This document shows, piece by piece, positions 15,512 to 37,230 of a stretch of DNA of 64,000 nt. The position numbers and the translations under genes are program-made. The first letter of the stretch is position 1. The number at the start of each line of letters is the position of its first letter. Source of the DNA: Bacteroidales bacterium (GTDB taxonomy: Bacteria; Bacteroidota; Bacteroidia; Bacteroidales; F082); contig JAEEQP010000017.1 of assembly GCA_016285355.1 (NCBI GenBank), positions 4,951 through 68,950 of the forward strand, given 5' to 3'. Below the pieces are notes generated by a model that made no database searches, was not told the DNA's origin, and was given only the letters and a program-made list of their open reading frames with translations.

Positions 15512-16018
15512 TTAGTATTGCACCCTTCGCTTGGCTGTCGGCTCCATCAGAAACTCAACTCTCTTCTTGTATTGGTTTGTACTGATGCCACTATCTATCT
15601 CTCCTTCAATATTGATGCTGACAAGATGTTTCGACTGTACCTTCTGTTTCCGCTGTTGCTCTTTGTTGAATGCGGTATCTAGTTGGACTTCCACATTCAC
15701 ATTCTTCAGTTGTGGAGCATAGGTGAAAAGGCTTTTTTTAATACTCTCTTGACATTCCGATTTGGTGACTTCTGGTCCCATTGGACCAACTAGCATACCG
15801 CTTTGTCCGCTGTTGAAAGTACGGTATTGTATGTTGGAATACTCGTGGTTCCAATATTCAAATCCGAAGTCTGGGTCAGCAAGGAAACTTCCACGTGGAG
15901 TGAAAATGATAAGTTCAATAAGATTGTCAAGCAATTCAATCTGTGAGTTGAGATTGCGTTCCAATTCCAATACAAAATCAGAATCGTGATATGCCAAAGG
16001 CGTGCTAATAAAAGCCAT
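15512..16018 (-). CDS. tssE: T6SS baseplate subunit TssE (gp25-like)
   Basis: A 168-residue GPW/gp25-family protein. It carries the family segment FTPRGSFLADPDFGFEYW (~residues 39-56) and a C-terminal domain with the alternating beta pattern of gp25 (YAPQLKNVNVEVQL). TssE nucleates the sheath at the baseplate. The Arg-Gly-Ser-Phe and Asp-Pro-Asp-Phe-Gly residues match the conserved lysozyme-like gp25 core. It sits 5 nt after tssK and 28 nt before tssF, the usual baseplate order. Confidence 0.85.
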   Translation of the reverse strand: MAFISTPLAYHDSDFVLELERNLNSQIELLDNLIELIIFTPRGSFLADPDFGFEYWNHEYSNIQYRTFNSGQSGMLVGPMGPEVTKSECQESIKKSLFTYAPQLKNVNVEVQLDTAFNKEQQRKQKVQSKHLVSINIEGEIDSGISTNQYKKRVEFLMEPTAKRRVQY

Positions 16019-16023: not shown

Positions 16024-17265
16024 TTAGATTTTAATCCAGGATTTGTAATCCTTGTGGAAGGTTAGCGAGAAGACATTTATCTCGCTTGCAACTCCATTGA
16101 GAACGGCTCTCAATTTGACGACCAAGGTTTGGTCGTCTTCGGGTTCTCTTTGGGAATTGAAACTGTTTTTTAGCTTCATGCCGAGTTGACTTCCCTTGGA
16201 TTTGGCTTCTTGGAACGAATTTCCTCCATCTGTTGAGAATTGCACTGTGGCTCCTGGTGTTGGGTTGAGTATGGGGACAAAGATGATGCTCTTACTACAG
16301 TTCTGATACAACTGGTCGTTTTCAATAGAAGGAGCGGCTGGTGCATTCAATTGTGGTTTTTCAGGTTCTTTTACTTCAGCATGGTTCAACTTTTCGTTGA
16401 TGGAGAACACAAATTCCAAACCCTCTTTGATCATTGGATATACATTTTGGTAATTGTATGGTTTCAGAGCGTAATTCCTGAAATTGTTAGCTTCGGACAA
16501 TATGAGGTTTTTGTCAAGTTGGCAGGCGACGGTGAAAGCTCCAACAAATTTCTGAATATTGGCCAACAACATCATGGGAGACATTAGGTCGCGATTTTTG
16601 TCGGTGTCAATGAGGGTTTGTTGTACAATAGGCCAAAAGAGGCGGAAAGCTTCATCGGTATCACCTTGCACCAGATCGAATAGCTTTGACTCAGTTTCAG
16701 CCAGGTTTTGAATAAATCTGTTCAACAAATCTTTATATTTTTGATGTGAAGACACAAACAGACAAGGGGGAACAAAATCGATTTCGTCAACATGCCATCC
16801 GCCGTAGTCCGTATCGACAAGATGTGCAATGGGCAGTGCATTGTCAGCAATGGAACTATTGACACCCACCAACGAAAACATGTACACGGGCTCTTCGTAT
16901 TCATCGCTTGTTTCTTCCCATTGCTCAGGATGCACATTGATGGTCAAATATAGTTCCTTGTCGTTTTGTATGACGGGCATTTGGATGCGTTTTTCCAAAT
17001 GGTTAGAATAACGCGTGTCATATTGCACATCGATAAGAGCTCCGCTTTTGGTAACAGCGATGCAGTCCAAAGCCTGTACTTCAACATATTCGGGATGGAT
17101 GTTTAATGAAAGTTGGAATGGACGAGCGCTAGGAAACAATCCGAATCGTCCAGCCGATGCTATTGTAAGGGCATTACCGATTCTGGATGCAGTGGCGTTT
17201 TCAGCCTTCCTCATGATTTCATCAGTCAGTCGCATTCCTTTTTTCCAACAAATTCTTTTTTCCAT
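16024..17265 (-). CDS. tssK: T6SS baseplate-membrane connector TssK (Bacteroidetes type)
   Basis: 413 residues from the ATG at 17265; the frame opens 9 nt earlier at a TTG, but the ATG gives the conserved start MEKRICWKKGMRLTDEIM. The RFGLFPSARPFQLSLNI region and the FVPPCLFVSSHQKYKDLLNRFI segment fit the TssK shoulder and neck domains. TssK trimers join the baseplate to the membrane complex. The C-terminal ~110 residues (after a Pro-rich linker APAAPSI) form a beta-rich domain that contains FSTDGG, probably a Chitobiase/beta-hexosaminidase-type C-terminal module, which is unusual at this position. tssG ends 5 nt upstream. Confidence 0.8.
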   Translation of the reverse strand: MEKRICWKKGMRLTDEIMRKAENATASRIGNALTIASAGRFGLFPSARPFQLSLNIHPEYVEVQALDCIAVTKSGALIDVQYDTRYSNHLEKRIQMPVIQNDKELYLTINVHPEQWEETSDEYEEPVYMFSLVGVNSSIADNALPIAHLVDTDYGGWHVDEIDFVPPCLFVSSHQKYKDLLNRFIQNLAETESKLFDLVQGDTDEAFRLFWPIVQQTLIDTDKNRDLMSPMMLLANIQKFVGAFTVACQLDKNLILSEANNFRNYALKPYNYQNVYPMIKEGLEFVFSINEKLNHAEVKEPEKPQLNAPAAPSIENDQLYQNCSKSIIFVPILNPTPGATVQFSTDGGNSFQEAKSKGSQLGMKLKNSFNSQREPEDDQTLVVKLRAVLNGVASEINVFSLTFHKDYKSWIKI

Positions 17266-17270
17266 AGTAT

Positions 17271-18149
17271 TCAAATATTCATGTTGTAATTCATAAAATT
17301 ATAAACAGACTCATTCGACAGGCATAGGGGATCAGTGTCATAGCTGATGTTGAACTTCAACACTACTTCCAATCCCATGAAATAGTCTTGGATGAACAGG
17401 CGAAAGGTCTCAATCTCTTCAATCACTTTCAAAAAGTCTGCATCACAAAAACTCTCAGGCCAAAAATGAATGTCGTATGTTGTAGCTTGTTCGTAAAACG
17501 TGTTATCGACATAAAAACCGTTTATGTCTGAACCAAGTTGGGTATCGTATCTTGGACAAGGGTCAGTGAATTCATGCTTTTTATCCTTAACGCTAATGTT
17601 CAAACCTTCTTCCATAAAAACTTTGCGTAACATCATGGTTAAATGGGTTCTGTTTCCACGAATCCATTTACAGAAAGGCAAAAAAGGAAGGGTCTGCTGG
17701 ATGAATCGGTTTTGCCGTTGTGCTTCGCTGATCTCATCACCGAGGATGTCAATCATGATTTTGTCGGTTTCAACATATTCCTTCAACCTCTCCCTGATGC
17801 TCATGCGCAGACGGAGCAACATCAGATCAATGGGCGCGAAAAACTTATAAGCATATTCTATCTCACGTTCCTGAGCTTCGCACTCTTCTTCAAATAATTC
17901 CTTTTCATTGGCGGCTGGCAAGTTGTCAAAGCGGTCAATGGGATGAAACATTAGTTCGGGTAGGACATTGTATAAGCTGGTACGTCCTACGGTTAGTTTC
18001 AATGTTCCATTTTCATGCTCCAAATCCATAAGGTCGTTGTATGCGTTACGTTTGTGTAGTCCGCTGAAAGCAACTTTGCACGAACCTTCTGGAAAATAGG
18101 ATAGAAGGAGCTCGATATTGAGGTCGTCGGGAATATTTCTGGGAAGCAT
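17271..18149 (-). CDS. tssG: T6SS baseplate subunit TssG (Bacteroidetes type)
   Basis: 292 residues from the ATG at 18149; an in-frame TTG at 18161 overlaps nothing useful and was not chosen. Recognised by position (tssG-K-E-F) and by the TssG-like pattern: an acidic, helical middle region with LRLRMSIRERLKEYVET, then PFLPFCKWIRGNRTHL, and a C-terminal beta segment FHFWPES-like followed by FNISYDTDP. TssG forms the (TssF)2-TssG wedge. It starts 12 nt after the E1 stop, which places the ubiquitin-like block and the baseplate genes in one transcript. Confidence 0.75.
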   Translation of the reverse strand: MLPRNIPDDLNIELLLSYFPEGSCKVAFSGLHKRNAYNDLMDLEHENGTLKLTVGRTSLYNVLPELMFHPIDRFDNLPAANEKELFEEECEAQEREIEYAYKFFAPIDLMLLRLRMSIRERLKEYVETDKIMIDILGDEISEAQRQNRFIQQTLPFLPFCKWIRGNRTHLTMMLRKVFMEEGLNISVKDKKHEFTDPCPRYDTQLGSDINGFYVDNTFYEQATTYDIHFWPESFCDADFLKVIEEIETFRLFIQDYFMGLEVVLKFNISYDTDPLCLSNESVYNFMNYNMNI

Positions 18150-18161
18150 GATGAGAAGCAA

Positions 18162-19361
18162 TTATTGGAACGCAGCGGCATCAGCACAGAGTTCGACATG
18201 GAATATACCTTTTTCAGTGCTGACTTGGATTACATCGTATGGGGGTATTCCGATTTGTTGCAACGTGAGATCCTGATAGGGAAAATCGGCATCAATGTTC
18301 TCGTAAAATGATTTGTGGAATAAAGTACGGTGACTCAGTTTTCTTATTTCAGCATTTTTGTTGATGAAATGGTCGAGCTGTGACTCAGGAATCATGATTT
18401 TGAATTCCTTTTCTGGCTTGTCAGAAACAATTTTGTCGATAAATTTGTTGTTGCACATATTGATTTCTACATTGTCCACATTGAGAAGTGACTTTAGGGA
18501 AGCAAGGACATCTTTCACAGATTGTGTTGCTGAAAGTTTTGTTCCTTCCATAATATTATCCCAAAGTTCATGGGCAGTACAATTGTTTTTCCATGAGGCA
18601 AACTTGAAGACCTTGGTGCTATTGGTCATTCCGTCATAATGGAACATTTTTCCCTGCAAGGTGCGGAATTGCGGAGCGGCCTCGGTATCGAGGTGGATGA
18701 TTTTCATGGCCTCTTGGACTTGCATGGCTCCTATGATGGATGCACTAATGGGCGTAGTGGCCACTCGTCCTGCAGAACTTTGAAGACGAACCACGTCAGC
18801 ACACCCTGTCCTTAGCATGATGTTGTTGAATTCATCTCGTGAGAGGCCACATTCATAACATGCCAAGCCAGGTGTATACACTTTTACGACTCCTGTCATG
18901 TTCTCGATACTGCCGTCAACCCAAGTTTTTCCAGCCCTCATGCACAAACGGTTGAGTTGATAGCGCGCAATGCGGCTGTCGAGGCAGCCAATGACTACAT
19001 CCACCATGTGATAGATGCCAAAACCGACATCTGAAAACAGATTGCCCACAATTGGAATAACGTTGATTTGTGGATTGATTTCCATCGCACGTTTGGCTAC
19101 AATCTCAGCTTTATAGGAATGATTGTATGCGTCTTCCTCCCTGAAAAGGACTGAACGGGTGAGATTTGACAATTCTATTTGATCAAAATCGACCACATAA
19201 ATGTGACCGACGCCGAAGAGGGCCAAATCTTTTACGACCTCATTGCCTAAGGCTCCAGCACCTGCAACCAGCACCCGAGCATTTTTGACTTTTTCTTTCT
19301 TGAACCAGGAAAGCAGGGTAAAAACGCCCTCGCCCCATTCATATTTGTTATTGTTTTCCAT
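18162..19361 (-). CDS. E1-like (ThiF/UBA) ubiquitin-like activating enzyme
   Basis: This 399-residue protein has a ThiF/E1 adenylation domain (~residues 20-260). Visible features are GAGALGN (34-40), the ATP-side DFDQIELSNLTRSVLF (58-73, with the conserved Asp and Asn-x-x-Arg), DVVIGCLDSR (121-130), a Cys pair CYEC (168-171), Cys187 as a candidate catalytic Cys, TTPISASIIGAMQVQEAMK (202-220), and a later NNCTAH that may complete a zinc site. The C-terminal ~130 residues end in LTLQQIGIPPYDVIQV, resembling the beta-grasp ubiquitin-fold domain of E1s. Expected role: adenylate and thioester-bind the Ubl encoded at 26515-26844. It is flanked by the RING-FHA gene (8-nt gap) and tssG. Confidence 0.9.
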   Translation of the reverse strand: MENNNKYEWGEGVFTLLSWFKKEKVKNARVLVAGAGALGNEVVKDLALFGVGHIYVVDFDQIELSNLTRSVLFREEDAYNHSYKAEIVAKRAMEINPQINVIPIVGNLFSDVGFGIYHMVDVVIGCLDSRIARYQLNRLCMRAGKTWVDGSIENMTGVVKVYTPGLACYECGLSRDEFNNIMLRTGCADVVRLQSSAGRVATTPISASIIGAMQVQEAMKIIHLDTEAAPQFRTLQGKMFHYDGMTNSTKVFKFASWKNNCTAHELWDNIMEGTKLSATQSVKDVLASLKSLLNVDNVEINMCNNKFIDKIVSDKPEKEFKIMIPESQLDHFINKNAEIRKLSHRTLFHKSFYENIDADFPYQDLTLQQIGIPPYDVIQVSTEKGIFHVELCADAAAFQ

Positions 19362-19369
19362 GATGATTG

Positions 19370-21784
19370 TTAGTTTTCAACATATTGGAAAGTAGTATCT
19401 CCAATTTTAAAGATGTCATTATTATAAAGTGGCACAGGCTTGTTGTCGGAATTAAGCTCTGTTCTCGTATTGAAAATAATGAACGCTAATGGTTTCATCA
19501 TAGCCTGAGAACGAGCATGGTCAATGTAAAGTTGCACATGCTCCTTTGCCACTTTATTGCTCTTTTCCCAATTCATCATAATTTCACATTGTTGAGTCAT
19601 GCCAATCGTTACCTTATGGCCTCCTCCATTGGCGTTCATCCATTTATGGATTGGTATTTTTGTCCCAGCTTTGATTCCATCCTTAATGACAAGGAAGTAT
19701 TTCTCCGCCAACATTCTAACTGTAACAAGCGAGGCACCCAGTCCGCCGCCATAAATGACGAAATCAAGTAATAAATTCTTCCAACTTCCACGCATGTTGG
19801 TAATACTAGAGAAATATAGCACCATAAAACCAATGATAGCCGATGCCAAACCTCCTAAAAGGGCACTTTTGATTGGAATGGTGGATTTGATGGTAAGGCT
19901 TAGCGAAGTGCATATTGAGAATAGCAAGTAAGCGGGGAATGAATAATACCATCGGATGTAAGTGCTGTCAGGAGAAAGGCATAAGCATAGGATAATAGAT
20001 CCCAAGGCAAATGCAGCCATGCCGATAACACTTGACAACAAGGATAACCCCATGATTTTCAGCAAAGACTTCCAGTCTTTTCTCTTGATGCCGTCATTAT
20101 ATCTGAAAATGAGCGAGAGGAAAAAGGCTAAGAGTAGTCCTATGGTGAGGAAAGAAGAAATTTCTGTTGTACACAAATCTGTGATGTTCAAACTTTGTGC
20201 TTTCTCGCCGAAGAAGATCTTGACAATACCTTTTGCCAAACCTTTGAAAAGTCCTCTTCCAGTGAGGTCATAGATAATCCAACTGACCAAACCAGCAATA
20301 ACACCCATAATTGTCAAAGAACAGTCGCGCAATGTTTTCATGCTGAAAAGTTCTTTCCAATGAACATGATCTTGTATGCCTTCCTTACAGTTTTGCCCAT
20401 ATTCGACGCACTTGAAATCATTGGCTTTCCAACAATGCACATGCATAATATGTTTGCATTTGGTCACAACCTTTTCGTCTGGCATGATTTCCATTCTACA
20501 TAATGGACATCTTAGTTTGATATTCTTGACATTCTCTGTTAATACTATTGGTCTGTATCGTTTGTAGTATTTTGCAGCAAAGGCCTTCGACTTCACTCCA
20601 GGGATGAGTATTTTCATGATAATGATAAATAACACAATAGTAGCGAGTGCTACAATCAATGATATCAAGTACTTTTTTAATGATTCGCTTGTGTTTTCAG
20701 CTCGATTGGGCCATGGATTTAACGAGGTACCAATAGAAAATGATGCAATACCTATTCTTTGGTCATCCCACAGAGCTTCATAATTCACCATTTCTCCTGT
20801 ATAAGTGTTCTTCTCGGGAACTTGATAAGTGAGGGCAAAGTCGTACATTTCATTTCTGACGGCTTGCATAAAGCTTACCAACAAACTGTCGATATTATTG
20901 GAGGGCATATAGTCACCTAGGCGGCTACTGATGATGTTGCCGTTGGTGTCTCGTGGTTTAGTGACACTTTTCAGATGCCTTTCCAAACTTTCGTTGATAC
21001 CTTCTTCTGTCTTATAATAGAAGGCATATACTTTGGGTACATACTGAGCTGTTTTAAGATATTCATTGATTTCAAGAATTGTAAGATATTCTATACTAGG
21101 TATTTTACTGCTTTCAGTGAAAATAAATAATAAATTCTTTCCATCATTATTTTGAGCCCTTAGTGAGATGGTATCATTTATCTGATGACCAGCTTCCCAT
21201 TTGACGGAATCAATGAGGGTTCCATATCCCCACTCGAACTCTGAAAGCTTGCTATATAAAGCACTGTAAAAACATTTCTCATTGGCTCCCTTCTTAAATT
21301 GTTCTTTGAAATTTTTGTAGTTTTGTTTTGTAACCAATTTGCTTTGTGTGACGCTATCGCCGAAAAATGAAATGTACACACTACTATCATGAGCACTTTC
21401 AACCAGTGATTTGAGAGCTTCAAAGATTTGGCCTTTGCCCTCTATTGGTATATTCCTATCAATTAAGACGGAGAAAGTATAGCCGGCGGGTATACGTTGT
21501 CCTTCTGTTAAGGTCTTCACTTTCCAACGACTTCTTGGAACGGTGTCACCGTCCTCAATCAGGACGAAATGCGTTTCAAGATCAGGAGCATCTACCTCGG
21601 TCATACGTTTTCCGTTCTCATCGAGAGCTTTTAGAAAAAACGTAATGCTATCATTTCCAACATCATATACGTGATTTTCATTGCCAAACTGGATTTCATT
21701 CGGTTTTTGGGCATTGGCAGGAGATACCCAAATAAAAAACATACTGATAAGTAATCCGATGATTATCTTTTTCTTCTTGTCCAT
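19370..21784 (-). CDS. Multi-pass membrane protein: VWA-like, RING-H2-like zinc finger and FHA domain (candidate E3)
   Basis: 804 residues from the ATG at 21784, which begins a signal peptide/anchor (KKKKIIIGLLISMFFIWVSPANA). Residues ~100-285 form a von Willebrand A-like domain with an atypical MIDAS (VLIDRNIP). A membrane helix follows (~374-393), then a cytoplasmic zinc-ligand array C426-x2-C429-x13-C443-x-H445-x2-H448-x2-C451-x7-C459-x6-C466: the RING-H2 pattern except that the last pair is C-x6-C. Several more membrane helices lie at ~490-695. The C-terminal ~75 residues resemble an FHA domain (VTIGMTQQCEI, EHVQLYIDH, IFKIGDTTF). It starts inside the JAB gene (22-nt overlap). It may be the E3 and phosphosensor of the locus, and perhaps a membrane-complex part. 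Confidence 0.75.
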   Translation of the reverse strand: MDKKKKIIIGLLISMFFIWVSPANAQKPNEIQFGNENHVYDVGNDSITFFLKALDENGKRMTEVDAPDLETHFVLIEDGDTVPRSRWKVKTLTEGQRIPAGYTFSVLIDRNIPIEGKGQIFEALKSLVESAHDSSVYISFFGDSVTQSKLVTKQNYKNFKEQFKKGANEKCFYSALYSKLSEFEWGYGTLIDSVKWEAGHQINDTISLRAQNNDGKNLLFIFTESSKIPSIEYLTILEINEYLKTAQYVPKVYAFYYKTEEGINESLERHLKSVTKPRDTNGNIISSRLGDYMPSNNIDSLLVSFMQAVRNEMYDFALTYQVPEKNTYTGEMVNYEALWDDQRIGIASFSIGTSLNPWPNRAENTSESLKKYLISLIVALATIVLFIIIMKILIPGVKSKAFAAKYYKRYRPIVLTENVKNIKLRCPLCRMEIMPDEKVVTKCKHIMHVHCWKANDFKCVEYGQNCKEGIQDHVHWKELFSMKTLRDCSLTIMGVIAGLVSWIIYDLTGRGLFKGLAKGIVKIFFGEKAQSLNITDLCTTEISSFLTIGLLLAFFLSLIFRYNDGIKRKDWKSLLKIMGLSLLSSVIGMAAFALGSIILCLCLSPDSTYIRWYYSFPAYLLFSICTSLSLTIKSTIPIKSALLGGLASAIIGFMVLYFSSITNMRGSWKNLLLDFVIYGGGLGASLVTVRMLAEKYFLVIKDGIKAGTKIPIHKWMNANGGGHKVTIGMTQQCEIMMNWEKSNKVAKEHVQLYIDHARSQAMMKPLAFIIFNTRTELNSDNKPVPLYNNDIFKIGDTTFQYVEN

Positions 21785-23436
21785 ATTTTTAATTCTTCTA
21801 ATAATTGTTCTCCATAATAAGTTTCGTCGGTACACAGGTCATTAGAAATAATGGGTATGGTTGTAACCAGACCGTCAGTTTTCGAATAGACCAGTACGAA
21901 TTTGATTTTATCAAGATAGTTGGCGATAGCTTTCTTGATAGATGGGATGCTGCAATGGTTGGCCAAAACAAAACACCCAATGAGTTCGTTGTCAGATATT
22001 GATTCGGTATCCTCAACTTTGGCAGCTATATAATAGGTGGTTTGTTTCGGTTGCTGCTGGGTGAAACCGTGTACATAATAAACAGGATTGTGTTCTTGTT
22101 TGACTGTAAGCTTGTCTATGTCGATGATGACACTATTGGTGAGTCCGACAGAATAACATTGACTGATGCGTGATTTGGCAGTGGCCAGAGTATTAAATAG
22201 GTCTTCAGGTTTAATAGAGGTACGGCTGCTTTCCACCGCCCACTTGTACCACTCTTCTAATGAATAGAGTTTTGTCAGGTCCGCTTTCGAGTTGATATTT
22301 AGGTCGTGTTTAAAAGTAAAGATTCCCAGCTCTTGCGTGGGTGTAAGGATGTCGATAACAATAGCGGTCAGGAATTTTGGGTATGTGGGATGTTTGTGGA
22401 GGAGGTGCAAACTGCAATCGGTATTGCTGAAAAACACGCCTAAGCCTGGGTGAGAGTGTACCCAGCAGGTCAAGTCATATTGCAAGTCGGTTTCACGCCT
22501 CAATTTTCTAAGTTTTTCGCTGACCTTTAGCTTGATTTTAGCCCCAAAATTCAGTTCGTATTCAGCAAAAATGGCATCATCGCCTGGTTTGACAATTTCT
22601 TCTAAGGAAACACAATACTCGTCTTTTTCTGCATCGCGTATCCACCGTCCTAACACCATGCAGCCGTCTTCCTTGGGATTGTTGGGATTCCTAAGGTCTT
22701 CAGCATACATGTTGTAAATGTCTATGATGCAAGTGTTTTTGATGTACATGGTCTTGACTGCGGAATCGTTGCAGAAATCGGAACAGTTGACAGCAAGATA
22801 GTTGCTGTCTTTAAATACATCGTCAAGACTTTGTTTGTGAAGAATAGAGGTAGTCTTACGCCTTACGACAATATCGGTATTTCCTTCGCTACTGGATGTG
22901 GTTGCCATTAGGATGTTCTTTCTGGCTTTCTCGTTCCTTCGTCTGGCTTTGATTACAAAAACGACAACGACAGTTAGGATGAGCAAAAGGATTAAAGTCA
23001 GCACTATCCATTCCCATTGATGATTATCAGATTCATCGCTTTGAGGTTTGTTTTCCGACTCTTGGTTTTCAATCTCTTGACGTTTCTTTTTCAGGATGCT
23101 GAGCATATCCTTTTCTATGCATTGCTTGCTGATTTCCATTGGAGTCATGTCGGCAGTTTCAGGACTATTGTCTTTTATTCTGTATGTGCCGTAGTTGTCA
23201 TCATAAAAATCCAACTCTTCAAGGAAATTTCTGCTGAATCGGATTCCTTCTTCATCCGTTAAGGGAAGTTGTGATTGTGAGTTGACATGGGACTCAAATG
23301 TCTTCAGGATGACTTCCTTGTCAATTGATCCGTCAGCGTTTCGTCGTACGTCGTTGGTTTGCGCCTGTGTCATTGTCTCTATGGATAGTAATAGGGACAG
23401 GATAATTAAAGAAATGATACGGTAAATGTATTTCAT
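21763..23436 (-). CDS. Membrane-anchored JAB/JAMM metalloprotease (Ubl deconjugase/maturase-like)
   Basis: 557 residues from the ATG at 23436; a TTG 6 nt earlier is possible. A signal peptide is followed by an N-terminal extracytoplasmic helical region, a membrane helix (~143-163, WIVLTLILLLILTVVVVFVI) and a cytoplasmic JAB1/MPN domain. The zinc motif HSHPGLGVFFSNTD (H327, H329, D340; H-x-H-x10-D) is complete, and the preceding YELNFGAKIKL strand is typical. A second ~150-residue domain follows. JAMM proteins remove or trim ubiquitin-like proteins. It lies between two secreted/membrane proteins and the RING protein, so deconjugation probably takes place at the inner membrane. Confidence 0.88.
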   Translation of the reverse strand: MKYIYRIISLIILSLLLSIETMTQAQTNDVRRNADGSIDKEVILKTFESHVNSQSQLPLTDEEGIRFSRNFLEELDFYDDNYGTYRIKDNSPETADMTPMEISKQCIEKDMLSILKKKRQEIENQESENKPQSDESDNHQWEWIVLTLILLLILTVVVVFVIKARRRNEKARKNILMATTSSSEGNTDIVVRRKTTSILHKQSLDDVFKDSNYLAVNCSDFCNDSAVKTMYIKNTCIIDIYNMYAEDLRNPNNPKEDGCMVLGRWIRDAEKDEYCVSLEEIVKPGDDAIFAEYELNFGAKIKLKVSEKLRKLRRETDLQYDLTCWVHSHPGLGVFFSNTDCSLHLLHKHPTYPKFLTAIVIDILTPTQELGIFTFKHDLNINSKADLTKLYSLEEWYKWAVESSRTSIKPEDLFNTLATAKSRISQCYSVGLTNSVIIDIDKLTVKQEHNPVYYVHGFTQQQPKQTTYYIAAKVEDTESISDNELIGCFVLANHCSIPSIKKAIANYLDKIKFVLVYSKTDGLVTTIPIISNDLCTDETYYGEQLLEELKIWTRRKR

Positions 23437-23447
23437 AATCAATGAAT

Positions 23448-24722
23448 TCAGATGGATATTCGTTTATTGTTTCCTGTTTTGTTTTTGCCTTTGTCAATAG
23501 CATTGTGTACTGCGGTTTTGCTTTTTTGTCGTGCTTGGTTCATAGCCTTCCCTGTTTGTCTACGGATAGCACCTTGAGCTTTGCTTCTCGCCATGTTTTT
23601 GGCTCTGTTTTCCGCATCTTTCTGCATCTGCATCATGCTGCGTTGTGTCCTAATGTTGCGGAAGCTTTGCAACACTTGATTGCCCACAAAAAGCAAAATG
23701 GCCAATAACACGCCGCCAATAATTTTCCAAATATTGCGATTCTTTAGTTCTTTTATTTTCTCTGTAGCTTCTTTCTTATACTGACCGTTGGGATGAGTCT
23801 TTAGATAGATTTCATAATCGTCTTTTTTAAGACAATGTGCATAATCATCGTAGTCAGCCTTCCTTTCTGCCTCTTCTTGTGCGGCAAGGGCTTGAGCCTG
23901 GGCTTGTTCTTGTGCGGCAAGTTCTTGTTCTTTGGCTTGTTTCTCTAAATCCTTTTTTTTTGTATCATATTGTTCTATGAATCGTTCAATCTCTTGGGTA
24001 ATTTTTGTTTTGTCAACATTATATTTTTGCTTTTGGAGATTATTGTATACATCAACCAAGATGTCTTCAAAAGGAACTGACTCTTGTTTGGCAAGGAGCT
24101 CTTTGGCCAATTTGAGATTGTTCAGAGCGTTGGTTTCTTCTTCCGATACGGTCTCTTCTATTTCCTCTACTTGGTATTGTGGATCGGATTTAATTCTATT
24201 GTATTGGGAAGGCTTGGAATTGCTTCCCATCTTGACATTGAGATAGCCACACAAATATAAAATCTTGTATTCTCTTTTTCCTTCATAATGTGCTAGGTAG
24301 ATAGGAATGGATACGACTTTTTCACCTGGTGATTTTATCTCAAAGGATAGCGAAGGATAGGGTTGGTTGTCAAGGAAAAAATAGCTGTCTAAAGATTTGG
24401 AATAACCTATGTCCGATGGGATGGAGAAAGCCCGAGGGGTGATAATGCTGGTGAATTTTATGTCTTCTATCACTTCAATCCTATCGAAAAAAAGCAATTT
24501 GATTTCGCTACTCTTGCCATATCTTCCACGAAGGGCATCTCCAAGGTTTTTTCTTACGCTTTTGAACTTCAATTCAACCTTGTTGTCTCGTTGTGTCGTT
24601 TCATAAGTGACGATAATCCTATCACCCTGGTCAGAGCACAAAGTGTCTGTGATGATCCGTGCCGGGGAGAAAAGGCTTGCAGAGAGTGCGAGAATTAAAA
24701 GAAAAGTTCTGATACACTTCAT
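23448..24722 (-). CDS. Secreted/membrane coiled-coil protein of the Ubl-T6SS block
   Basis: 424 residues from the ATG at 24722, where a signal peptide starts (MKCIRTFLLILALSASLFSPA). A beta-rich N-terminal domain (~30-185) is followed by a long Glu/Lys/Ala/Gln-rich coiled coil (~210-310), a short DYDDYAHCLKKDDYEIYLKT helical repeat resembling a TPR-type unit, a membrane helix (~345-362, IIGGVLLAILLFVGNQVL) and a very basic C-terminal tail (~60 residues) that would be cytoplasmic. Its ATG overlaps the upstream stop by 4 nt. No family recognised. Topology suggests an envelope-spanning strut of the secretion machine. Confidence 0.6.
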   Translation of the reverse strand: MKCIRTFLLILALSASLFSPARIITDTLCSDQGDRIIVTYETTQRDNKVELKFKSVRKNLGDALRGRYGKSSEIKLLFFDRIEVIEDIKFTSIITPRAFSIPSDIGYSKSLDSYFFLDNQPYPSLSFEIKSPGEKVVSIPIYLAHYEGKREYKILYLCGYLNVKMGSNSKPSQYNRIKSDPQYQVEEIEETVSEEETNALNNLKLAKELLAKQESVPFEDILVDVYNNLQKQKYNVDKTKITQEIERFIEQYDTKKKDLEKQAKEQELAAQEQAQAQALAAQEEAERKADYDDYAHCLKKDDYEIYLKTHPNGQYKKEATEKIKELKNRNIWKIIGGVLLAILLFVGNQVLQSFRNIRTQRSMMQMQKDAENRAKNMARSKAQGAIRRQTGKAMNQARQKSKTAVHNAIDKGKNKTGNNKRISI

Positions 24723-25825
24723 TGTTTGTAGTCCTTGATGGCTTTGTAAACCTTTTTGATGTTCATTACAGTAATTCCTCCTTTCTTCCAATTAGAAGCA
24801 TGTTTTGCACATGTCGGATCGGAGCAGCATTTATAGAGCGTTTCCACTTCTTGCATCATTTCCTTCGATTTTTCTTTGTCTTTGTTGAGCAAATCCATGT
24901 AATGGTTGTTCAATAAATTGTAAATTTCTTCAAGTGAAAGCGACTGTTTGCAGAATTTGCAATAGTGAACGGTTTTATGCTTTGTCTTGTCGCAGCAATC
25001 GTATTTTGATTCTATATAGTCTTTTATGGCAATATCCATAGTGTCTAATTTTGATTTTAAATCCTCATACATTTTGTATTTGCTGCTTCCTGGTTCCCAT
25101 TTGGTTTTGGCTTCATTGATTTTTGTTTTTAAGTAATCTTTTTTATCTGTGTATACAAAGATTTGGTCTTCAAATTTAGGCTTGTGCAGTTTGTTGGTAC
25201 AAAATGCGTGAGCCTTTATGGAATCGTTGAAAACCGTAACCAATGAGTCGCACTGTTGTTCGAGTAGGAAATAGGTGGAATCCGTATTTTCAACAGAGAT
25301 TTCGATGGAAATCTCTTGAATGCTTTCTATGGTTCTCTTTTTTTTACCGCACAAGAACATCTCCTTCTCTTTGGCTACATGGATGGGCACTACACACTTA
25401 TAAATCTCCCCTTCTTTGACGGTGATTTTGGGAAACTGATATTCGTGTGTTCCGTATTCAGATGGAATACAAACAAAATCTTCTACATTTATAGTTTCAA
25501 CTTTTTGGACGAATTCGCCACCAGGTAAGTTTTCCGCAAAATAAACACCGATTTCACGAAGTGCTTTTTTGTCCAATGCCCGGTTAAACAATAAGAGCTG
25601 GTAATCATCGTCAGCTTTTTCCAATTTGATGAACACAGAAGTATTTCCTATAGCATCCGTCTCTCCTTTTTCTAAGATAAAGCGACACAACTCTGAAAAA
25701 TTATATATTATTAGTTGTTCGTGGGATGGATGGTCATCGCTCAGTTGGACATCAATTCGTTGCTGTCCAAACGCCATTGTAATGGCAAAGCAAAGTACCG
25801 TTAGCGTTAGGAAGGTTTTTCTCAT
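24719..25825 (-). CDS. Secreted protein of unknown function with Cys/His-rich C-terminal region
   Basis: 368 residues with a signal peptide (MRKTFLTLTVLCFAITMAFGQ). The N-terminal domain (~20-180) resembles that of the next gene in size and pattern (mixed beta, with ICKCVVPIHVA-like and KKKRTIESIQEISIEI-like segments), so the two may be distant paralogues. The C-terminal half contains clustered cysteines (YDCCDKTKHK, HYCKFCKQ, CCSDPTCAKH) able to bind zinc or form disulfides. It overlaps both the E2 stop and the next start by 4 nt, so it is tightly coupled in the Ubl block. Function unknown; an envelope component is the best guess. Confidence 0.6.
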   Translation of the reverse strand: MRKTFLTLTVLCFAITMAFGQQRIDVQLSDDHPSHEQLIIYNFSELCRFILEKGETDAIGNTSVFIKLEKADDDYQLLLFNRALDKKALREIGVYFAENLPGGEFVQKVETINVEDFVCIPSEYGTHEYQFPKITVKEGEIYKCVVPIHVAKEKEMFLCGKKKRTIESIQEISIEISVENTDSTYFLLEQQCDSLVTVFNDSIKAHAFCTNKLHKPKFEDQIFVYTDKKDYLKTKINEAKTKWEPGSSKYKMYEDLKSKLDTMDIAIKDYIESKYDCCDKTKHKTVHYCKFCKQSLSLEEIYNLLNNHYMDLLNKDKEKSKEMMQEVETLYKCCSDPTCAKHASNWKKGGITVMNIKKVYKAIKDYKQ

Positions 25826-26493
25826 ATCATACGGGGTTTTTTGATAAGTGGTTTAATTGGAGTCTGAGTGTCAGAGGCAGGTGTGGATGAAGGCTCAGGT
25901 TTTTTTATAGGCTCGGGAGTGGTTTGTGCAAACCTTGTCCAGCCATTAGGTTCGGCTTCCTCGCGCACCCATTCGGCCACATTCTGGTCTTCAGGGTAAG
26001 GATAGGTGTTTTGTGCGTGATAGAGTTGGTATTTCAGGTAGCGTTCCACGCGGAGCACTAAGGTCTTGAGCGAGGCCATCACCCCCATGTCTTTAATGGT
26101 GAGGCACACATGCCCTTTGAAACTTCCCGAGTAGCGGATGTTGGGATGCCATACATCGGTGCGGAAGGTGAAGATAGGATTGCCATCGGCAGCAGGATAG
26201 TTGTTGGGCAATATGATACTCATCTTGTGAAGGTTGCCGAAGATGGGTTCGCGGGGAATAGGAGAGTCTTTTACGCCCACAATGGATCTGACGCGATACC
26301 AAATCTCATATTCGACGGGGAGACCCATAGCGTTCTTCTTGCGGATAATATAGGAAATGGAAGGCTCACGCGGGTTGGCACTTTCGGCTTGACGTTTATC
26401 GCAGAGTGTATCAAGTTCTTTCCATTCCTGCCAAAGTGCCGCATCACGGGGCTTTAGCTTCTTTAGGTTGAAGTTATTAATGTTATCGTTCAT
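25822..26493 (-). CDS. E2-like ubiquitin-conjugating (UBC-fold) enzyme
   Basis: A 223-residue protein with a clear UBC core at ~residues 60-165: MSIILPNNYPAADGNPIFTF, then VWHPNI (HPN tripeptide at 116-118) and GHVCLTI with the candidate catalytic Cys130, followed by the helix LKTLVLRVERYLKYQL and a WVREEAE segment. The HPN-to-Cys spacing (12 residues) is close to that of eukaryotic E2s. A Pro-rich tail of ~45 residues (EPIKKPEPSS, PIKPLIKKP) follows. No signal peptide, so cytoplasmic. It lies 21 nt after the Ubl gene and overlaps the next gene by 4 nt. Predicted to take the Ubl from the E1 and pass it to targets. Confidence 0.9.
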   Translation of the reverse strand: MNDNINNFNLKKLKPRDAALWQEWKELDTLCDKRQAESANPREPSISYIIRKKNAMGLPVEYEIWYRVRSIVGVKDSPIPREPIFGNLHKMSIILPNNYPAADGNPIFTFRTDVWHPNIRYSGSFKGHVCLTIKDMGVMASLKTLVLRVERYLKYQLYHAQNTYPYPEDQNVAEWVREEAEPNGWTRFAQTTPEPIKKPEPSSTPASDTQTPIKPLIKKPRMI

Positions 26494-26514
26494 GGCTTGT
26501 GAGGTTGTGAAAGA

Positions 26515-26844
26515 TTAACCTGCAATAGGTTCACTGGTGAGTTCAAGATGGTCGCCAGGCTGCACATTGTAATCAGCCAGAGTGAGTTCGCGGCCCTCAT
26601 CATCCATAAATTCAAAAATGGTAGGCTCTTCACCTTCTTCGACGATTTGTCCCAAAAGGTATCTGATGGGGACGCCACCGTTGTCCATTTTCGGGAGTTC
26701 GAAAACCTCAACGATTCTATTGATTTGATCGCTGATGGTACTCATAGGGTTGGTTACCTCCACTTCCACTTCTTCATATTGAGTTCCAGGAAGGGTTAGC
26801 GTGATGACGAATGCATCATCGTAATAATTTTTTTCGTTTTCCAT
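26515..26844 (-). CDS. Ubiquitin-like beta-grasp protein (candidate Ubl modifier)
   Basis: This 109-residue acidic protein has a beta-grasp pattern: an N-terminal beta hairpin (FVITLTLPG ... EEVEVEVT), a helix (ISDQINRIVEVFELP), a YLLGQIV strand, and the typical final segment RELTLADYNVQPGDHLELT, like the last strands of ubiquitin and YukD. The C-terminus is short and ends in Ala-Gly, so a free terminal Gly could be adenylated without cleavage. It directly precedes the E2 gene. That context, more than sequence alone, supports a conjugated modifier; a non-conjugated YukD-like role is the alternative. Confidence 0.8.
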   Translation of the reverse strand: MENEKNYYDDAFVITLTLPGTQYEEVEVEVTNPMSTISDQINRIVEVFELPKMDNGGVPIRYLLGQIVEEGEEPTIFEFMDDEGRELTLADYNVQPGDHLELTSEPIAG

Positions 26845-26887: not shown

Positions 26888-27949
26888 TTACCATATCCAT
26901 GCGCCTCGGGGCTGGTCGTAGTTCTCGCTGCGGAAGTACTCAAACTTGTTCTTGAACACGATAAGCTGGTAGGCTTCCTCGTTGATGATTTGTGGTTCTC
27001 TAAGCCCGTAGCGGTAGAGAGCTAATTGATATTTGTTCTTTATCGGGTCGATGTAGATAATGAAGTCCGTCTTGGTGTCAGCATGTGCACCATAGAAGCG
27101 GTCGAAGATGGCACGGATGGCTTCGTCTTCCAACCAGAAGTAAGCTGTGTACTCCGATTTCTTAATGTGCCATTTCACAGCTAATTTCTTTGGCTTGCCC
27201 GCTTCGTGATAGTTGAGCAGACCCCCGTCGTGCAGTTTGTCGTGGGTGCCGTCGTATAGAGTTTCCTCGATGAAATCAAACACAGGCTTCATTTCTTGTT
27301 CTTCCTCTGTATATTGCAGCCATTTTCCTTCTTCCTCATCCCAATGTCCGAACATCGGTAAATAGCGGTAGGTGAACTGTTTCATGTAGTTGTCGAAAAG
27401 GTCGCGGGGAGGGAGACCCTTGGTGGCGAGGTTTGCATAGGCTTCATCTGATGATTTCAGCATCATTTCCACATATTCGTTTCTCGACAAGTTTGTACTA
27501 GGACAGAAATCTTCAAAATCAACATCTGTTTCCTCGGCTTTCATCCAAGCCAATAGTTTTGCTCGTTTATCACCATGTAGCCATAGGGCAACTCGTCCAT
27601 AGGGAGCCATCCCTACAATAATGTAATTATACAATGGTTGTCCGTCTGTCTCATCAGTTTCTTGCAGCAATTGTTCTATAACGTCTTTGGGCAAATCTTC
27701 TTCAATTGAATAGAACTTGTTTTCAACCAACGATAGCCATATCATGTCAATTTCCGAAGGAACAGGGAAATCCTTTTCATCATCTATATGCATGGAAACA
27801 GGCTTGCCCCATTCGTCGGCAAAGGGACAGCAATAAGGTATGCTGATGCCATCGTCTTCAGACCACATCAGGTTTCCAAAGAATGTCTCTGAAGGAAACA
27901 ATTTAGGAGCATTGCCGCTCAAGGAATACGCATGTTTTGCCATAGCCAT
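26888..27949 (-). CDS. DUF2931-like protein
   Basis: A 353-residue protein without a signal peptide. The conserved-looking pattern WLSLVENKFYSIEEDLP, then IIVGMAPYGRVALWLHG (strand-turn-strand), and a later WHIKKSEYTAYFWLEDEAI recalls DUF2931 proteins, which are frequent next to Bacteroidetes T6SS phospholipase-like genes and often considered immunity or accessory proteins. It follows the DUF2235 gene by 16 nt, which fits an effector/partner pair. No catalytic motif is visible. The link to DUF2235 is inference from adjacency. Confidence 0.5.
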   Translation of the reverse strand: MAMAKHAYSLSGNAPKLFPSETFFGNLMWSEDDGISIPYCCPFADEWGKPVSMHIDDEKDFPVPSEIDMIWLSLVENKFYSIEEDLPKDVIEQLLQETDETDGQPLYNYIIVGMAPYGRVALWLHGDKRAKLLAWMKAEETDVDFEDFCPSTNLSRNEYVEMMLKSSDEAYANLATKGLPPRDLFDNYMKQFTYRYLPMFGHWDEEEGKWLQYTEEEQEMKPVFDFIEETLYDGTHDKLHDGGLLNYHEAGKPKKLAVKWHIKKSEYTAYFWLEDEAIRAIFDRFYGAHADTKTDFIIYIDPIKNKYQLALYRYGLREPQIINEEAYQLIVFKNKFEYFRSENYDQPRGAWIW

Positions 27950-27965: not shown

Positions 27966-29609
27966 TTAGCTGCCTTTCAGAGTATCTGTTCCATTTTCTG
28001 TGTATATTATTCTTTCGTAGCAGTAATTGTCATTATAATGAGGACCGTTGACAGAACCGGCACTTGAAGAAAAATGAAGATGCCGAAGGCGCAGGTTTTT
28101 ATAGTCCTCTTCTGATTTTGGAAAATAACACTGTCCGTAATTGCTACTACAACCTTTCCAAATGGATTTCATGTCCTCAAAGCTCTTGGGAAGTTTGTCT
28201 GGGATTGAGTGTTTTCCTTTTATACTGTCGCTCTCAAAAACATCACCATGCTTTTCGGCCATGATTACTAAAGGAAGATTTGAATAAATGCCAACGGAGA
28301 AGCGTTTGACATCAACATTTTCAACATTGTCGTTATCATCGAAGATGTCTTGTTCCATATCGTTAGGGGTATTCGTGTCGTCTTTTAGCCAACCTAATCG
28401 TTTTAAGTTTTCTAAAGTCATTTCAATTCCATCTTGCTTGGGGGAAACTTTCGATATTTTAAGCCGGTGTTTTCCCTTCCTTATAGGAAGAGACACTTCA
28501 CCTCTATATCCAGGCAATTCAGATCCCCCAATATCAGTATGTATTCCAGGTATCAGAAATTGTGTTACCTGCCCACCGTCAGGAAGAGCACATAGCGCAA
28601 AATTCTCTCTGTATTCGTCAAGAGCACAGATGTGTATTACCTTTTTAACAGATATGTCATGCGCAACGGTATTTAAGCCAAGGTCTCTCACGTTCTCATC
28701 ATGAAATGTGCTTGCTGTCACGGAAACACGCTCTATACCTGTCACGGGTACCGATAGTGCCGATGGAGCCCATTGAGGATTACGAATCACTCCTACAGAA
28801 GCAACAGTATCGTATACTCCCACATTGAATTTAATGTCCTTTTGTTTTGGGAATATTATTTTATCCTCACTACTACTATTGTTATTAGAGAATTTTTTGT
28901 TGTATTTCTTTATTCCTTTCCGAAGAATTGACGGTCTATTCCCTCGATTACAGCATAAATCCACAAAAAGCCGTGCTTCTGTAGCACCTCTGCTAAAACC
29001 AAAAACGTCAAATATATAATTAACCCCTGAAATGGAACTATCAAAATTAAAAAAGTTTATTCTTGTCACAAGAGCGTCCAAAGCATCCCAAATTTTCTGA
29101 ACCACACCGGAAACACCTTGGCCGGCCGCAAGTCCCGCAACACTGATTCCTTTTGAGACATTGGCAAAAGTTCCGCTGCCTGTAACATATATTTTATATG
29201 AATAATCATATTGTTCTTTAGGTTGGTAAAAACGCTCTAAGATTGCTATGTTGGTATATCCTACACCTTGCATAAAACTTCGAGGCATACCAAGTCGCCA
29301 ATTATTTCTTTTGTTTAAAATCTCTCTCTTGGTCTGCGTTTTGTCTGATGATAACTCAATAGATACTCGTTCTTTCTTTGTTAATTTGTCTAATTTCATA
29401 CCTGACAGGATTTCGTCGTTTTCTTTGATTTCCTGTTCTGTAGCTTCACTTTTTTTCTCTCTTGCCAATCTTCCCATCGTTACTTGGGCACGGTTGTTAT
29501 TTGTGCCATCAAAGAAAACACCAATGCGAACTTTTATGTCTACAGGCTCGTTCTCATTGCGTTCTGACTTATTTGCGGCTTGTGCATTTATTTCGGATAT
29601 TGAGGCCAT
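27966..29609 (-). CDS. DUF2235 / Tle1-like phospholipase-type alpha/beta hydrolase, candidate T6SS effector
   Basis: A 547-residue protein with the DUF2235 signature: RIGVFFDGTNNN near the N-terminus (~residues 27-38), the nucleophile elbow FGFSRGATEAR (~residues 210-220, GxSxG), VGVYDTVASVGV, HICALDEYRENF and the late FLIPGIHTDIGGS with Asp and His. DUF2235 includes Tle1 phospholipase effectors delivered by T6SS into rivals. No signal peptide, as expected for such effectors. It is encoded with PAAR and VgrG genes. A specific immunity gene is not certain; the adjacent DUF2931 gene is the best candidate. Confidence 0.82.
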   Translation of the reverse strand: MASISEINAQAANKSERNENEPVDIKVRIGVFFDGTNNNRAQVTMGRLAREKKSEATEQEIKENDEILSGMKLDKLTKKERVSIELSSDKTQTKREILNKRNNWRLGMPRSFMQGVGYTNIAILERFYQPKEQYDYSYKIYVTGSGTFANVSKGISVAGLAAGQGVSGVVQKIWDALDALVTRINFFNFDSSISGVNYIFDVFGFSRGATEARLFVDLCCNRGNRPSILRKGIKKYNKKFSNNNSSSEDKIIFPKQKDIKFNVGVYDTVASVGVIRNPQWAPSALSVPVTGIERVSVTASTFHDENVRDLGLNTVAHDISVKKVIHICALDEYRENFALCALPDGGQVTQFLIPGIHTDIGGSELPGYRGEVSLPIRKGKHRLKISKVSPKQDGIEMTLENLKRLGWLKDDTNTPNDMEQDIFDDNDNVENVDVKRFSVGIYSNLPLVIMAEKHGDVFESDSIKGKHSIPDKLPKSFEDMKSIWKGCSSNYGQCYFPKSEEDYKNLRLRHLHFSSSAGSVNGPHYNDNYCYERIIYTENGTDTLKGS

Positions 29610-29679: not shown

Positions 29680-29937
29680 ATGAAAGTAATACCAGAATCT
29701 ATCAAAGAAGCAGCAAAAGGTTTAATTAACCGTTTTGGATGCCACATTAATTACATTGGCGAATACGAAGGTCAACAAGCTTATATGGCATGTTTTCCAG
29801 AGGGTTATTCATTAGGTTTTCCATTTCTTTATCTTTTATCAAGTGAAGGCTTGGTAAGAGAGATTACTGGTTTTGAATCACTTCGCATTCTGAACTCAAT
29901 CAACATTGAAGATGTCGGAGAAAGCGGGGTCAAATAA
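29680..29937 (+). CDS. Small acidic-to-neutral orphan protein on the opposite strand within the T6SS locus
   Basis: An 85-residue protein with FPFLYLLSSEGLVREITGFESLRIL, presumably a small alpha-beta fold; similar short proteins occur in Bacteroidales but I know no function. It is the only plus-strand gene between 7.5 and 42.5 kb. A -7 motif TAGTTTTG at 29668-29675 sits only 4 nt before the ATG, so the transcript may be nearly leaderless. Its last 42 nt overlap, tail to tail, the end of the PAAR-toxin gene. Position beside two effector genes makes an immunity or regulatory role possible, but this is speculation. Confidence 0.6.
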   Translation: MKVIPESIKEAAKGLINRFGCHINYIGEYEGQQAYMACFPEGYSLGFPFLYLLSSEGLVREITGFESLRILNSINIEDVGESGVK

Positions 29938-37156: not shown

Positions 37157-37173
37157 GATGTTGTCATTGGTTT

Positions 37174-37220
37174 GGAGCTCCTTGGGGGAGGAAAATTTCC
37201 TCCCCCAAATGAAATGCTCC
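37174..37220 (-). promoter_or_regulatory. Strong intercistronic hairpin between the two hcp genes
   Basis: A near-perfect palindrome at 37182-37208 (TTGGGGGAGGAAA, one base, then its complement) is extended by GGAGC (37174-37178) and GCTCC (37216-37220). It lies after the stop of the first hcp and before the start of the second on the minus strand. No long U-tract follows, so it is better seen as an attenuator, processing site or 3'-protecting structure for the upstream hcp mRNA than as a full terminator. Confidence 0.7.
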
Positions 37221-37230
37221 AAGTGATTGA

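What the first reader, a model, noticed from the sequence alone, without database searches (positions are those of the whole stretch)
18162..26844. A complete ubiquitin-like pathway (Ubl, E2, E1, JAMM protease, RING-like protein) inside a T6SS operon
Seen: a beta-grasp Ubl ending in Gly, a UBC-fold E2 with HPN and Cys130, an E1 with ThiF and a C-terminal ubiquitin-fold-like domain, a membrane JAMM protease (HxHx10D) and a membrane RING-H2-like protein. They lie in overlapping or closely spaced genes between the Hcp/VgrG/effector genes and tssG-K-E-F. Known: Ubl-E2-E1-JAB operons (Bil-type defence, CBASS Cap2/Cap3, PRTRC) exist as separate systems. Inference: this set modifies T6SS structural proteins or effectors, or uses the machine for defence. 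I cannot exclude earlier comparative-genomic mention.
Basis: partly seen in the sequence, partly recalled or inferred. Interest (0 to 1): 0.95.

Follow-up and report, generated by a model that had tools for sequence, protein, structure and literature searches.

The report
Ubiquitin pathway inside a bacterial weapon
Some gut and rumen bacteria of the Bacteroidales carry genes for a ubiquitin-like protein, an E1, an E2, a RING protein and a JAMM-type protease inside the gene cluster of their type VI secretion harpoon, where these likely tag and untag a part of the harpoon itself and so would control its assembly.

Summary
Window 18162-26844 encodes a beta-grasp Ubl ending in Gly109, an E2 (HPN, Cys130), a ThiF-type E1, a membrane JAMM protease whose profile matches RPN11, and a membrane RING-H2 protein (predicted vWA-TM-RING-TMs-FHA). 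All lie in one T6SS operon (TssHBC-Hcp-Hcp-VgrG ... TssG-K-E-F). Of the 79 best E2-bearing loci, all Bacteroidota by title, 69 have T6SS genes on the locus. In an order-wide sample, 3 of 4 E2-positive genomes other than the query species have TssC, against 16 of 392 genomes. This T6SS is a separate branch from the TssN-bearing type. TssN, core of the known Bacteroidota membrane complex, is over cut-off in 1 of 69 such genomes (many are MAGs), TssR in 0 of 29. The operon instead brings membrane proteins with RING, JAMM and vWA domains, a kinase and a PP2C-like phosphatase. Best reading: a reversible Ubl pathway at the inner membrane that controls T6SS assembly, most likely through the baseplate. 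Conjugation and target are inferred. Against a strict membrane-complex replacement: G290 in this clade keeps the T6SS without the cassette, two other T6SSs (G279, G363) lack both cassette and TssN, and L028's genome has the cassette without TssC.

The parts
26515..26844 (-). Ubl, 109 aa, beta-grasp, C-terminal ...PIAG
25822..26493 (-). E2, 223 aa, HPN motif 116-118, Cys130, C-terminal Ile tail
24719..25825 (-). M5: protein with signal-peptide-like start, unknown fold, kept in the cassette
   Evidence: signal peptide by eye
23448..24722 (-). M4: signal-peptide-like start, hydrophobic stretch ~329-354, tail ending in -ISI
21763..23436 (-). Membrane JAMM/MPN+ protease (hydrophobic stretch ~140-168; E280, H328, H330, S338, D341, numbered from codon 23439)
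19370..21784 (-). Membrane RING-H2 protein, candidate E3: signal-peptide-like start, vWA ~94-314, TM, RING 426-466, further TMs, C-terminal FHA-like domain
18162..19361 (-). E1, ThiF-type, C187 candidate catalytic Cys, C168/C171 + C261/H264 candidate zinc site
17271..18161 (-). TssG (ORF; baseplate)
   Evidence: hhalign prob 99.9 to conventional TssG
16024..17274 (-). TssK (ORF; baseplate), extra C-terminal part and C-terminal Ile
   Evidence: (TIGR03353 1e-8, below cut-off)
15512..16018 (-). TssE (baseplate)
   Evidence: (GPW_gp25 below cut-off)
13696..15483 (-). TssF (baseplate)
   Evidence: prob 100, 1e-65
11857..12834 (-). Likely peptidoglycan hydrolase with LysM repeats (domain names by eye); relatives in 17 of 19 downstream stretches
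10223..11737 (-). Ser/Thr kinase with one hydrophobic stretch; relatives in 15 of 19 downstream stretches
8456..10213 (-). WG-repeat-like protein (name by eye); relatives in 12 of 19 downstream stretches
7558..8427 (-). PP2C-type phosphatase (name by eye); relatives in 12 of 19 downstream stretches
26888..27949 (-). DUF2931 protein; relatives in 44 of 79 loci
27966..29609 (-). Tle1-like candidate effector
   Evidence: 7.6e-16
29896..31389 (-). DUF4280 (PAAR-like by recall) protein with glutamine-amidase-type C-terminal domain, candidate effector
34682..36739 (-). VgrG
36743..37222 (-). Hcp/TssD 2
   Evidence: 1.6e-32
37231..37641 (-). Hcp/TssD 1
   Evidence: 8e-33
37715..39097 (-). TssC (sheath)
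   Evidence: 9e-134
39114..39668 (-). TssB (sheath)
   Evidence: profile matches the gene beside TssC in conventional L082, 4e-51
39595..41880 (-). TssH/ClpV
   Evidence: profile matches the ClpV-like gene of L082

Best explanation
In this operon, which encodes a type VI secretion system together with a ubiquitin-like protein, an E1, an E2, a membrane RING protein and a membrane JAMM protease and shows no tssN gene, the RING protein would act as the E3 that, with the E1 and E2, likely attaches the ubiquitin-like protein to a part of the secretion machine at the inner membrane, most likely the baseplate protein TssK, and the JAMM protease would take it off again. Shown: the gene set, its conserved motifs, its recurrence inside T6SS operons, and the absence of a TssN match over cut-off in nearly all of these genomes. 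Inferred: E1 C187 activates Gly109 of the Ubl, the Ubl passes to E2 C130, and the RING domain positions the E2 at the membrane. Also inferred: tagging licenses docking of the baseplate and tail, the task proposed for TssN's fixed ubiquitin-like domain in Bacteroides fragilis, and the kinase/phosphatase pair and the FHA-like domain tie this to a signal.
For: The cassette lies with T6SS genes in 69 of 79 loci. In the order sample, 4 of 5 E2-positive genomes have TssC (the query species among them) against 17 of 393 overall. Catalytic residues are kept: Ubl Gly109 34 of 34; E2 C130 19 of 19; E1 C187 68 of 68; JAMM HxH...S..D 26 of 26; RING ligands >=90%. TssN is over cut-off in 1 of 69 genomes with T6SS-linked loci and TssR in 0 of 29. 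TssN/O/P/Q/R queries from one conventional system hit 0 of 97 fetched stretches of cassette loci and their surroundings (sensitivity good for TssN, low for the others). TssC tree, unrooted: the 22 cassette rows and 7 TssN rows fall on opposite sides of a 100/100 branch. PMC10781749 (passages and section 11): tssN lies between tssK and tssG, TssN binds TssK and is proposed to dock the baseplate with its ubiquitin-like domain; here the RING and E1 genes lie directly beside tssG-tssK. TssK (32 of 35) and E2 (61 of 71) share a C-terminal Ile after variable linkers, background 43 of 608.
Against: No conjugate or target is known. G290, inside the cassette clade, keeps the T6SS but has neither E2 nor TssN. 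G279 and G363 have a T6SS with neither. L028's genome has the cassette without TssC, and L074 and L078 likewise. So neither part strictly needs the other. Many genomes are MAGs of untold completeness: 7 of the 40 T6SS-linked genomes show no TssC, so absence of TssN in a single genome is weak. The RING protein's FHA-like domain seems, by eye, to lack the phosphothreonine-binding Arg. The TssG C-terminal Ile/Leu also occurs in conventional TssG, and deep-branch E2s lack the tail. The TssK link rests on gene order and tails only.
Confidence: 0.45

Rival explanations
1. The Ubl is put on T6SS cargo (effectors, VgrG, Hcp, PAAR-like proteins) as a loading or self-protection tag, and removed before or after firing.
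For: In the window the Ubl lies next to DUF2931 and candidate effector genes. VgrG relatives are on 53 of 79 loci and DUF4280-protein relatives on 57 of 79, upstream of the Ubl.
Against: Effector content changes from locus to locus (Tle1 relatives on 16 of 79 loci) while the cassette stays. Candidate E3 and protease are membrane proteins. The Ile tail is on E2, TssK and M4, hardly on VgrG (0 of 49), Hcp (0 of 70) or DUF4280 proteins (1 of 43).
Confidence: 0.2
2. The cassette is a general membrane signalling or quality-control module of Bacteroidota (RING, JAMM, FHA, kinase) that one T6SS lineage has recruited; its targets are envelope proteins and not T6SS parts.
For: Stand-alone cassettes exist: L074 and L078, whose genomes lack TssC, and L075, L077 and L079, whose genomes have TssC of the conventional kind apart from it. 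In L028 the genes beside it read by eye as FHA, WG-repeat, LysM and peptidase proteins. In the E1 tree the five stand-alone rows are one side of a 99/96 branch (L028 lies on the T6SS-linked side).
Against: In the loci found the cassette is mostly with T6SS genes (69 of 79), and in 28 of 29 such genomes TssC is single.
Confidence: 0.22
3. It is an antiphage system of Bil/CBASS/Bub kind parked in a T6SS locus.
For: Same enzyme classes (E1, E2, JAB/JAMM, Ubl) as BilABCD (PMC11354881 passages). Bub E1 is a distant relative of this E1 (1.3e-10).
Against: PADLOC finds no Ubl, E2, JAMM or RING model match and only ThiF-part matches for E1. The fixed place inside one operon and the periplasmic domains do not suit a mobile defence island.
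Confidence: 0.07
4. The Ubl is a non-covalent structural part, as YukD is said to be in the ESAT-6 export system, and the enzymes do little.
For: YukD was reported not to be conjugated and to be a possible assembly factor (PMC1779556 passages). TssN and EccD carry fixed ubiquitin-like domains (PMC10781749 passages).
Against: Key residues of E1, E2 and JAMM and the Ubl C-terminal Gly are invariant in the sets aligned. Four of 34 Ubls have 2 to 4 residues after the Gly, as pro-forms do.
Confidence: 0.06

Closest known systems
T6SS subtype iii of Bacteroidota with TssNQOPR membrane complex (PMC10781749: passages, sections 11 and 33 read)
   Same: TssB, C, H, Hcp, VgrG, E, F, G, K; vWA domain in an envelope protein (TssR there, RING protein here); a ubiquitin-like domain in play (TssN there, free Ubl here)
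   Different: No TssN or TssR found; TssC on a separate branch (100/100); E1-E2-RING-JAMM-Ubl inside the operon; kinase and PP2C-like genes in the operon; TssK with other C-terminal parts
Caldiarchaeum subterraneum ubiquitin operon (PMC5654768, passages read)
   Same: Ub, E1, E2, RING, Rpn11/JAMM in one place; Ubl fold and JAMM profile match its ubiquitin and Rpn11
   Different: There a small RING finger protein, JAMM beside the operon, di-glycine end; here RING and JAMM in proteins with predicted membrane stretches, single Gly end, T6SS operon
BilABCD (PMC11354881, passages read)
   Same: Ubl, E2, JAB/JAMM, E1 encoded together
   Different: BilA has two Ub-like domains and BilD has an inactive plus an active adenylation domain; here one Ub-like domain and one ThiF domain, plus membrane RING; no RING was named for Bil in the passages shown
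CBASS Cap2 and Bub systems (recalled; BubCD appears only as a PDB match)
   Same: Prokaryotic E1 activity class
   Different: E1 match is loose; here E1 and E2 are separate genes
RING-E1-E2-JAB-YukD-like Ubl operons of Burroughs, Iyer and Aravind 2011 (recalled; the paper is not held)
   Same: Complete prokaryotic Ub sets with RING E3s were predicted there, as I recall
   Different: Whether a T6SS link was mentioned there could not be checked

Membership tests
T6SS (contractile tail secretion system) | sheath TssBC, ATPase TssH, tube Hcp, spike VgrG, baseplate TssE/F/G/K | tested here: met
   Pfam for TssC, Hcp, VgrG; profile comparison for TssK, G, F, E with a conventional system, prob 99.4-100; TssB and TssH by profile
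T6SS subtype iii (TssNQOPR type) | membrane complex gene tssN | tested here: not met
   Over cut-off in 1 of 69 genomes with T6SS-linked loci (completeness untold); 0 of 97 fetched stretches, 7 of 8 conventional loci
T6SS subtype iii (TssNQOPR type) | tssR | tested here: not met
   PF17643 in 0 of 29 genomes with T6SS-linked loci
T6SS subtype iii (TssNQOPR type) | tssO, tssP, tssQ | tested here: inconclusive
   Single-sequence queries hit 0 of 97 fetched stretches but also only 1, 1 and 3 of 8 conventional loci, so sensitivity is low
Eukaryote-like ubiquitin conjugation set (Caldiarchaeum type) | Ub-fold modifier with C-terminal Gly | tested here: met
   single Gly, no di-glycine
Eukaryote-like ubiquitin conjugation set (Caldiarchaeum type) | E1, UBC-type E2 with Cys, RING, Rpn11-like JAMM encoded together | tested here: met
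   RING by ligands and weak profile matches (0.02)
Eukaryote-like ubiquitin conjugation set (Caldiarchaeum type) | C-terminal ubiquitin-like domain in the E1 | tested here: inconclusive
   ~130 further residues after the ThiF part; no listed PDB match reaches there; not folded
Eukaryote-like ubiquitin conjugation set (Caldiarchaeum type) | ATP-dependent conjugation to lysines | not testable with these tools
   needs purified proteins
BilABCD | modifier with two Ub-like domains | tested here: not met
   109 aa, one beta-grasp domain
BilABCD | E1 with inactive plus active adenylation domains | tested here: not met
   399 aa with one ThiF stretch
CBASS Cap2 | E1-E2 fusion beside a CD-NTase | tested here: not met
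   separate E1 and E2 genes; no CD-NTase among the 20 window proteins put through Pfam; feature recalled

The most novel reading that the evidence does not exclude
A distinct class of type VI secretion system whose envelope platform is itself a ubiquitin ligase and deubiquitinase: RING and JAMM membrane proteins with periplasmic domains stand in for TssNQOPR, and reversible covalent attachment of a free Ubl replaces the fixed ubiquitin-like domain of TssN in docking and releasing the baseplate, under control of a kinase/phosphatase pair. To my knowledge it would be the first secretion machine built or gated by ubiquitin-style conjugation.
Probability: 0.3. Interest if true: 0.96.

Novelty: new variant of a known kind. 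Interest (0 to 1): 0.88.

Why it matters
As far as I recall, prokaryotic ubiquitin-like conjugation pathways have mostly been studied as phage defence. An E1-E2-RING-JAMM-Ubl set kept inside a secretion operon across dozens of gut and rumen species would be a house-keeping use of ubiquitin-type conjugation in bacteria, with a ready read-out (Hcp release). PMC10781749 reports that the TssNQOPR complex, or part of it, is in every Bacteroidota T6SS it found in 1253 complete genomes (section 11; its main model required at least one of the five genes, section 33). This lineage looks like an exception and raises the question of what anchors it.

Tried and rejected
Defence system: PADLOC gave no support beyond ThiF-part and kinase matches. 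Strict replacement of the membrane complex as a settled fact: lowered because G290, G279 and G363 have T6SSs with neither TssN nor E2, and L028 has the cassette without TssC. In G279 a TssP profile gives a weak match (1.6e-4), so it may keep part of the old complex. Weak TssN matches below cut-off: the one I read (L081, in G013) is a DsbD-like protein (name by eye); the five were not read. E1 nearer to eukaryotic E1 than to MoeB: not claimed, because the UBA7/UBA1 scores add up two domains; per stretch MoeB (95.8 bits) beats UBA7 (79.2 bits). Second MPN domain in the JAMM protein: hhalign probability only 17%, left open. TssK against the PDB: nothing. NCBIfam gave no family for Ubl, E2 or RING protein, and only weak off-target ones for JAMM. 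VIA-align rows for the RING model are filled by the vWA domain, so absence of other folds there says nothing.

Print searches: (listings), plus 'find' in PMC4714493 (no 'ubiquitin') and PMC10781749 (two places, on the EccD and TssN domain) showed no ubiquitin-like pathway tied to a T6SS. The library lacks most subscription papers; the 2011 RING paper and two 2024 Nature papers on bacterial ubiquitin-like systems (DOIs from memory) were not held.

Full report
What is there. The window is a Bacteroidales-like record for which no whole genome is held. On the - strand a row of genes runs from tssH (41880) to a PP2C-like gene (7558). Pfam names TssC (9e-134), two Hcp (1.6e-32, 8e-33) and VgrG. TssK, TssG, TssF and TssE were identified by profile-profile comparison with conventional T6SSs (prob 99.8, 99.9, 100, 99.4). 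Between the spike/effector genes and tssG lie Ubl, E2, M5, M4, JAMM, RING protein and E1, some with overlapping ends.

Recurrence. A scan of one genome per species for 84,980 species found 94 encoding stretches; the best 80 were kept as 79 loci, all titled as Bacteroidota, with many rumen and gut Bacteroidales. T6SS core genes lie on 69 of 79 and all five cassette genes on 64 of 79, in closely similar order. The ten without T6SS genes are L028, L036, L071, L072 and L074-L079, some of them short contigs. Downstream stretches fetched for 19 genomes hold TssF in 19, a LysM peptidoglycan-hydrolase-like gene in 17, the kinase in 15, and the WG and PP2C-like genes in 12 each. In a sample of 393 genomes of the order of Xylanibacter muris, TssC occurs in 17 and E2 in 5; four have both: G007 (the query species), G078, G210 and G274. 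The fifth, G030, is the genome of the stand-alone L074.

What the T6SS lacks. In Bacteroides fragilis the membrane complex is TssNQOPR; TssN interacts with TssK and is proposed to dock the baseplate with its ubiquitin-like domain, and TssR has a vWA domain (PMC10781749 passages; section 11). Here TssN is over the Pfam cut-off in 1 of the 69 genomes with T6SS-linked loci (L070, a Tannerella MAG), taking (0 of 29; 1 of 40) together. Over-cut-off matches outside these 69 are G033 (L076/L079) and G469 (L077), both stand-alone cases. TssR is in 0 of 29, and in 1 of all 33 searched (G033). TssC is single in 28 of those 29 genomes. In the remaining 46 genomes 36 have TssC, six with two matches, one of these (G427) apparently a gene split over contigs; 7 of the 40 T6SS-linked genomes there show no TssC, a sign of incomplete MAGs. 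Among the 17 TssC-positive genomes of the order sample, 7 have TssN, 4 have E2, none has both, and 6 have neither. In three of those six (G271, G302, G305) TssC lies on a short contig or at a contig end. In the unrooted TssC tree 22 cassette rows and 7 TssN rows fall on two sides of a 100/100 branch. Nine rows were in neither group; L073 has a long branch.

Results against a simple story. G290 groups with the window's clade (99/98) but has no E2 and no cassette gene in the 33 kb looked at. G279 and G363 group with the TssN side and have a T6SS with kinase, FHA-like and PP2C-like genes, no TssN and no E2 (FHA by eye); G279 has a weak TssP match. L028 has the cassette beside FHA-, WG- and peptidase-like genes (by eye) and no TssC in its genome. 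L074 and L078 genomes also lack TssC. L071's genome has a TssC of the conventional kind. So cassette and T6SS can live apart.

A tail shared by E2 and TssK. The last residue is Ile in TssK 32 of 35, E2 61 of 71, TssG 38 of 58, M4 35 of 61, TssE 9 of 18 and WG 6 of 13, against 43 of 608 unassigned ORFs of 200 aa or more, not all of which need be genes. The window's own WG protein does not end so. Conventional TssKs end otherwise (8 of 8 distinct), and G290's TssK lacks the Ile. TssG's tail is old, since the conventional TssGs listed end in Ile or Leu. Deep-branch E2s lack the tail. This hints that E2 and the baseplate meet the same partner; no reader is known.

How it most likely works. Shown: a full Ubl set with conserved key residues, kept in a T6SS lineage that lacks TssN in nearly all genomes searched. 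Inferred: E1 charges the Ubl, E2 carries it, the membrane RING protein positions E2 next to the docking baseplate, the Ubl is linked to TssK or a neighbour, and the membrane JAMM removes it (and trims pro-forms where they exist). The operon also brings periplasmic domains, in 18 of 79 loci a relative of the window's outer-membrane-type protein (31391-32650, type by eye) between RING and E1, and a likely peptidoglycan hydrolase, as an envelope-spanning complex would need. I give the dedicated-assembly reading 0.45, cargo tagging 0.2, a recruited general signalling module 0.22, defence 0.07 and a purely structural Ubl 0.06.

Known or new. Each part belongs to a known kind. The composition is closest to the Caldiarchaeum set (PMC5654768 passages). 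It fails two tested Bil features (two Ub-like domains, double adenylation domain; PMC11354881 passages). No paper found in the searches listed under Tried and rejected links a ubiquitin-like pathway to a T6SS. A 2011 comparative study of prokaryotic RING proteins that I recall could not be read and may hold an earlier mention.

Noticed in passing
window E2 25822, TssK 16024, M4 23448 (C-terminal ends); same genes in related loci: Shared C-terminal Ile tail on E2, TssK and M4 (also TssG, TssE, WG) far above background; some stand-alone systems show IKIRKK-like tails on E2 and RING protein.
   Followed up: partly
L028:1-18314: Cassette with no T6SS gene on the locus, next to FHA-, WG-repeat-, LysM- and peptidase-like genes (names by eye); genome has no TssC.
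   Followed up: partly
L110-L113 (G279, G363): Bacteroidales T6SSs on the TssN side of the tree without TssN, with kinase, FHA-like and PP2C-like genes near by; G279 has a weak TssP match.
   Followed up: partly
L108-L109 (G290): A T6SS inside the cassette clade without the cassette; carries a small zinc-ribbon plus FHA-like protein (by eye) and kinase-like genes.
   Followed up: partly
window 16024-17274 (TssK residues ~310-416): TssK ends either in a beta-sandwich-like extra domain (weak Pfam CHB_HEX_C, E 0.19) or in a shorter, often Pro-rich tail, depending on the species.
   Followed up: partly
L074, L075, L077, L078, L079: Stand-alone E1-E2 cassettes in Chitinophagales and other Bacteroidota; in L074, L075, L078 and L079 a Ubl-like gene lies between E1 and E2, and L075, L078 and L079 have a second JAMM gene.
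   Followed up: partly
window 21763-23436, residues ~415-558 of the JAMM protein: Region after the JAMM domain may be a degenerate second MPN domain; support weak.
   Followed up: partly
window 41896-42447: NusG-like protein just upstream of tssH (name by eye); relatives seen in 2 loci.
   Followed up: no
window 32693-34663: Secreted-looking repeat protein with a C-terminal sorting-like domain (by eye) inside the T6SS operon.
   Followed up: no
L070, L071 (Tannerella MAGs): Genomes holding Ubl/E2 loci and also TssN (L070) or conventional TssC (L071), either two systems or mixed bins.
   Followed up: no
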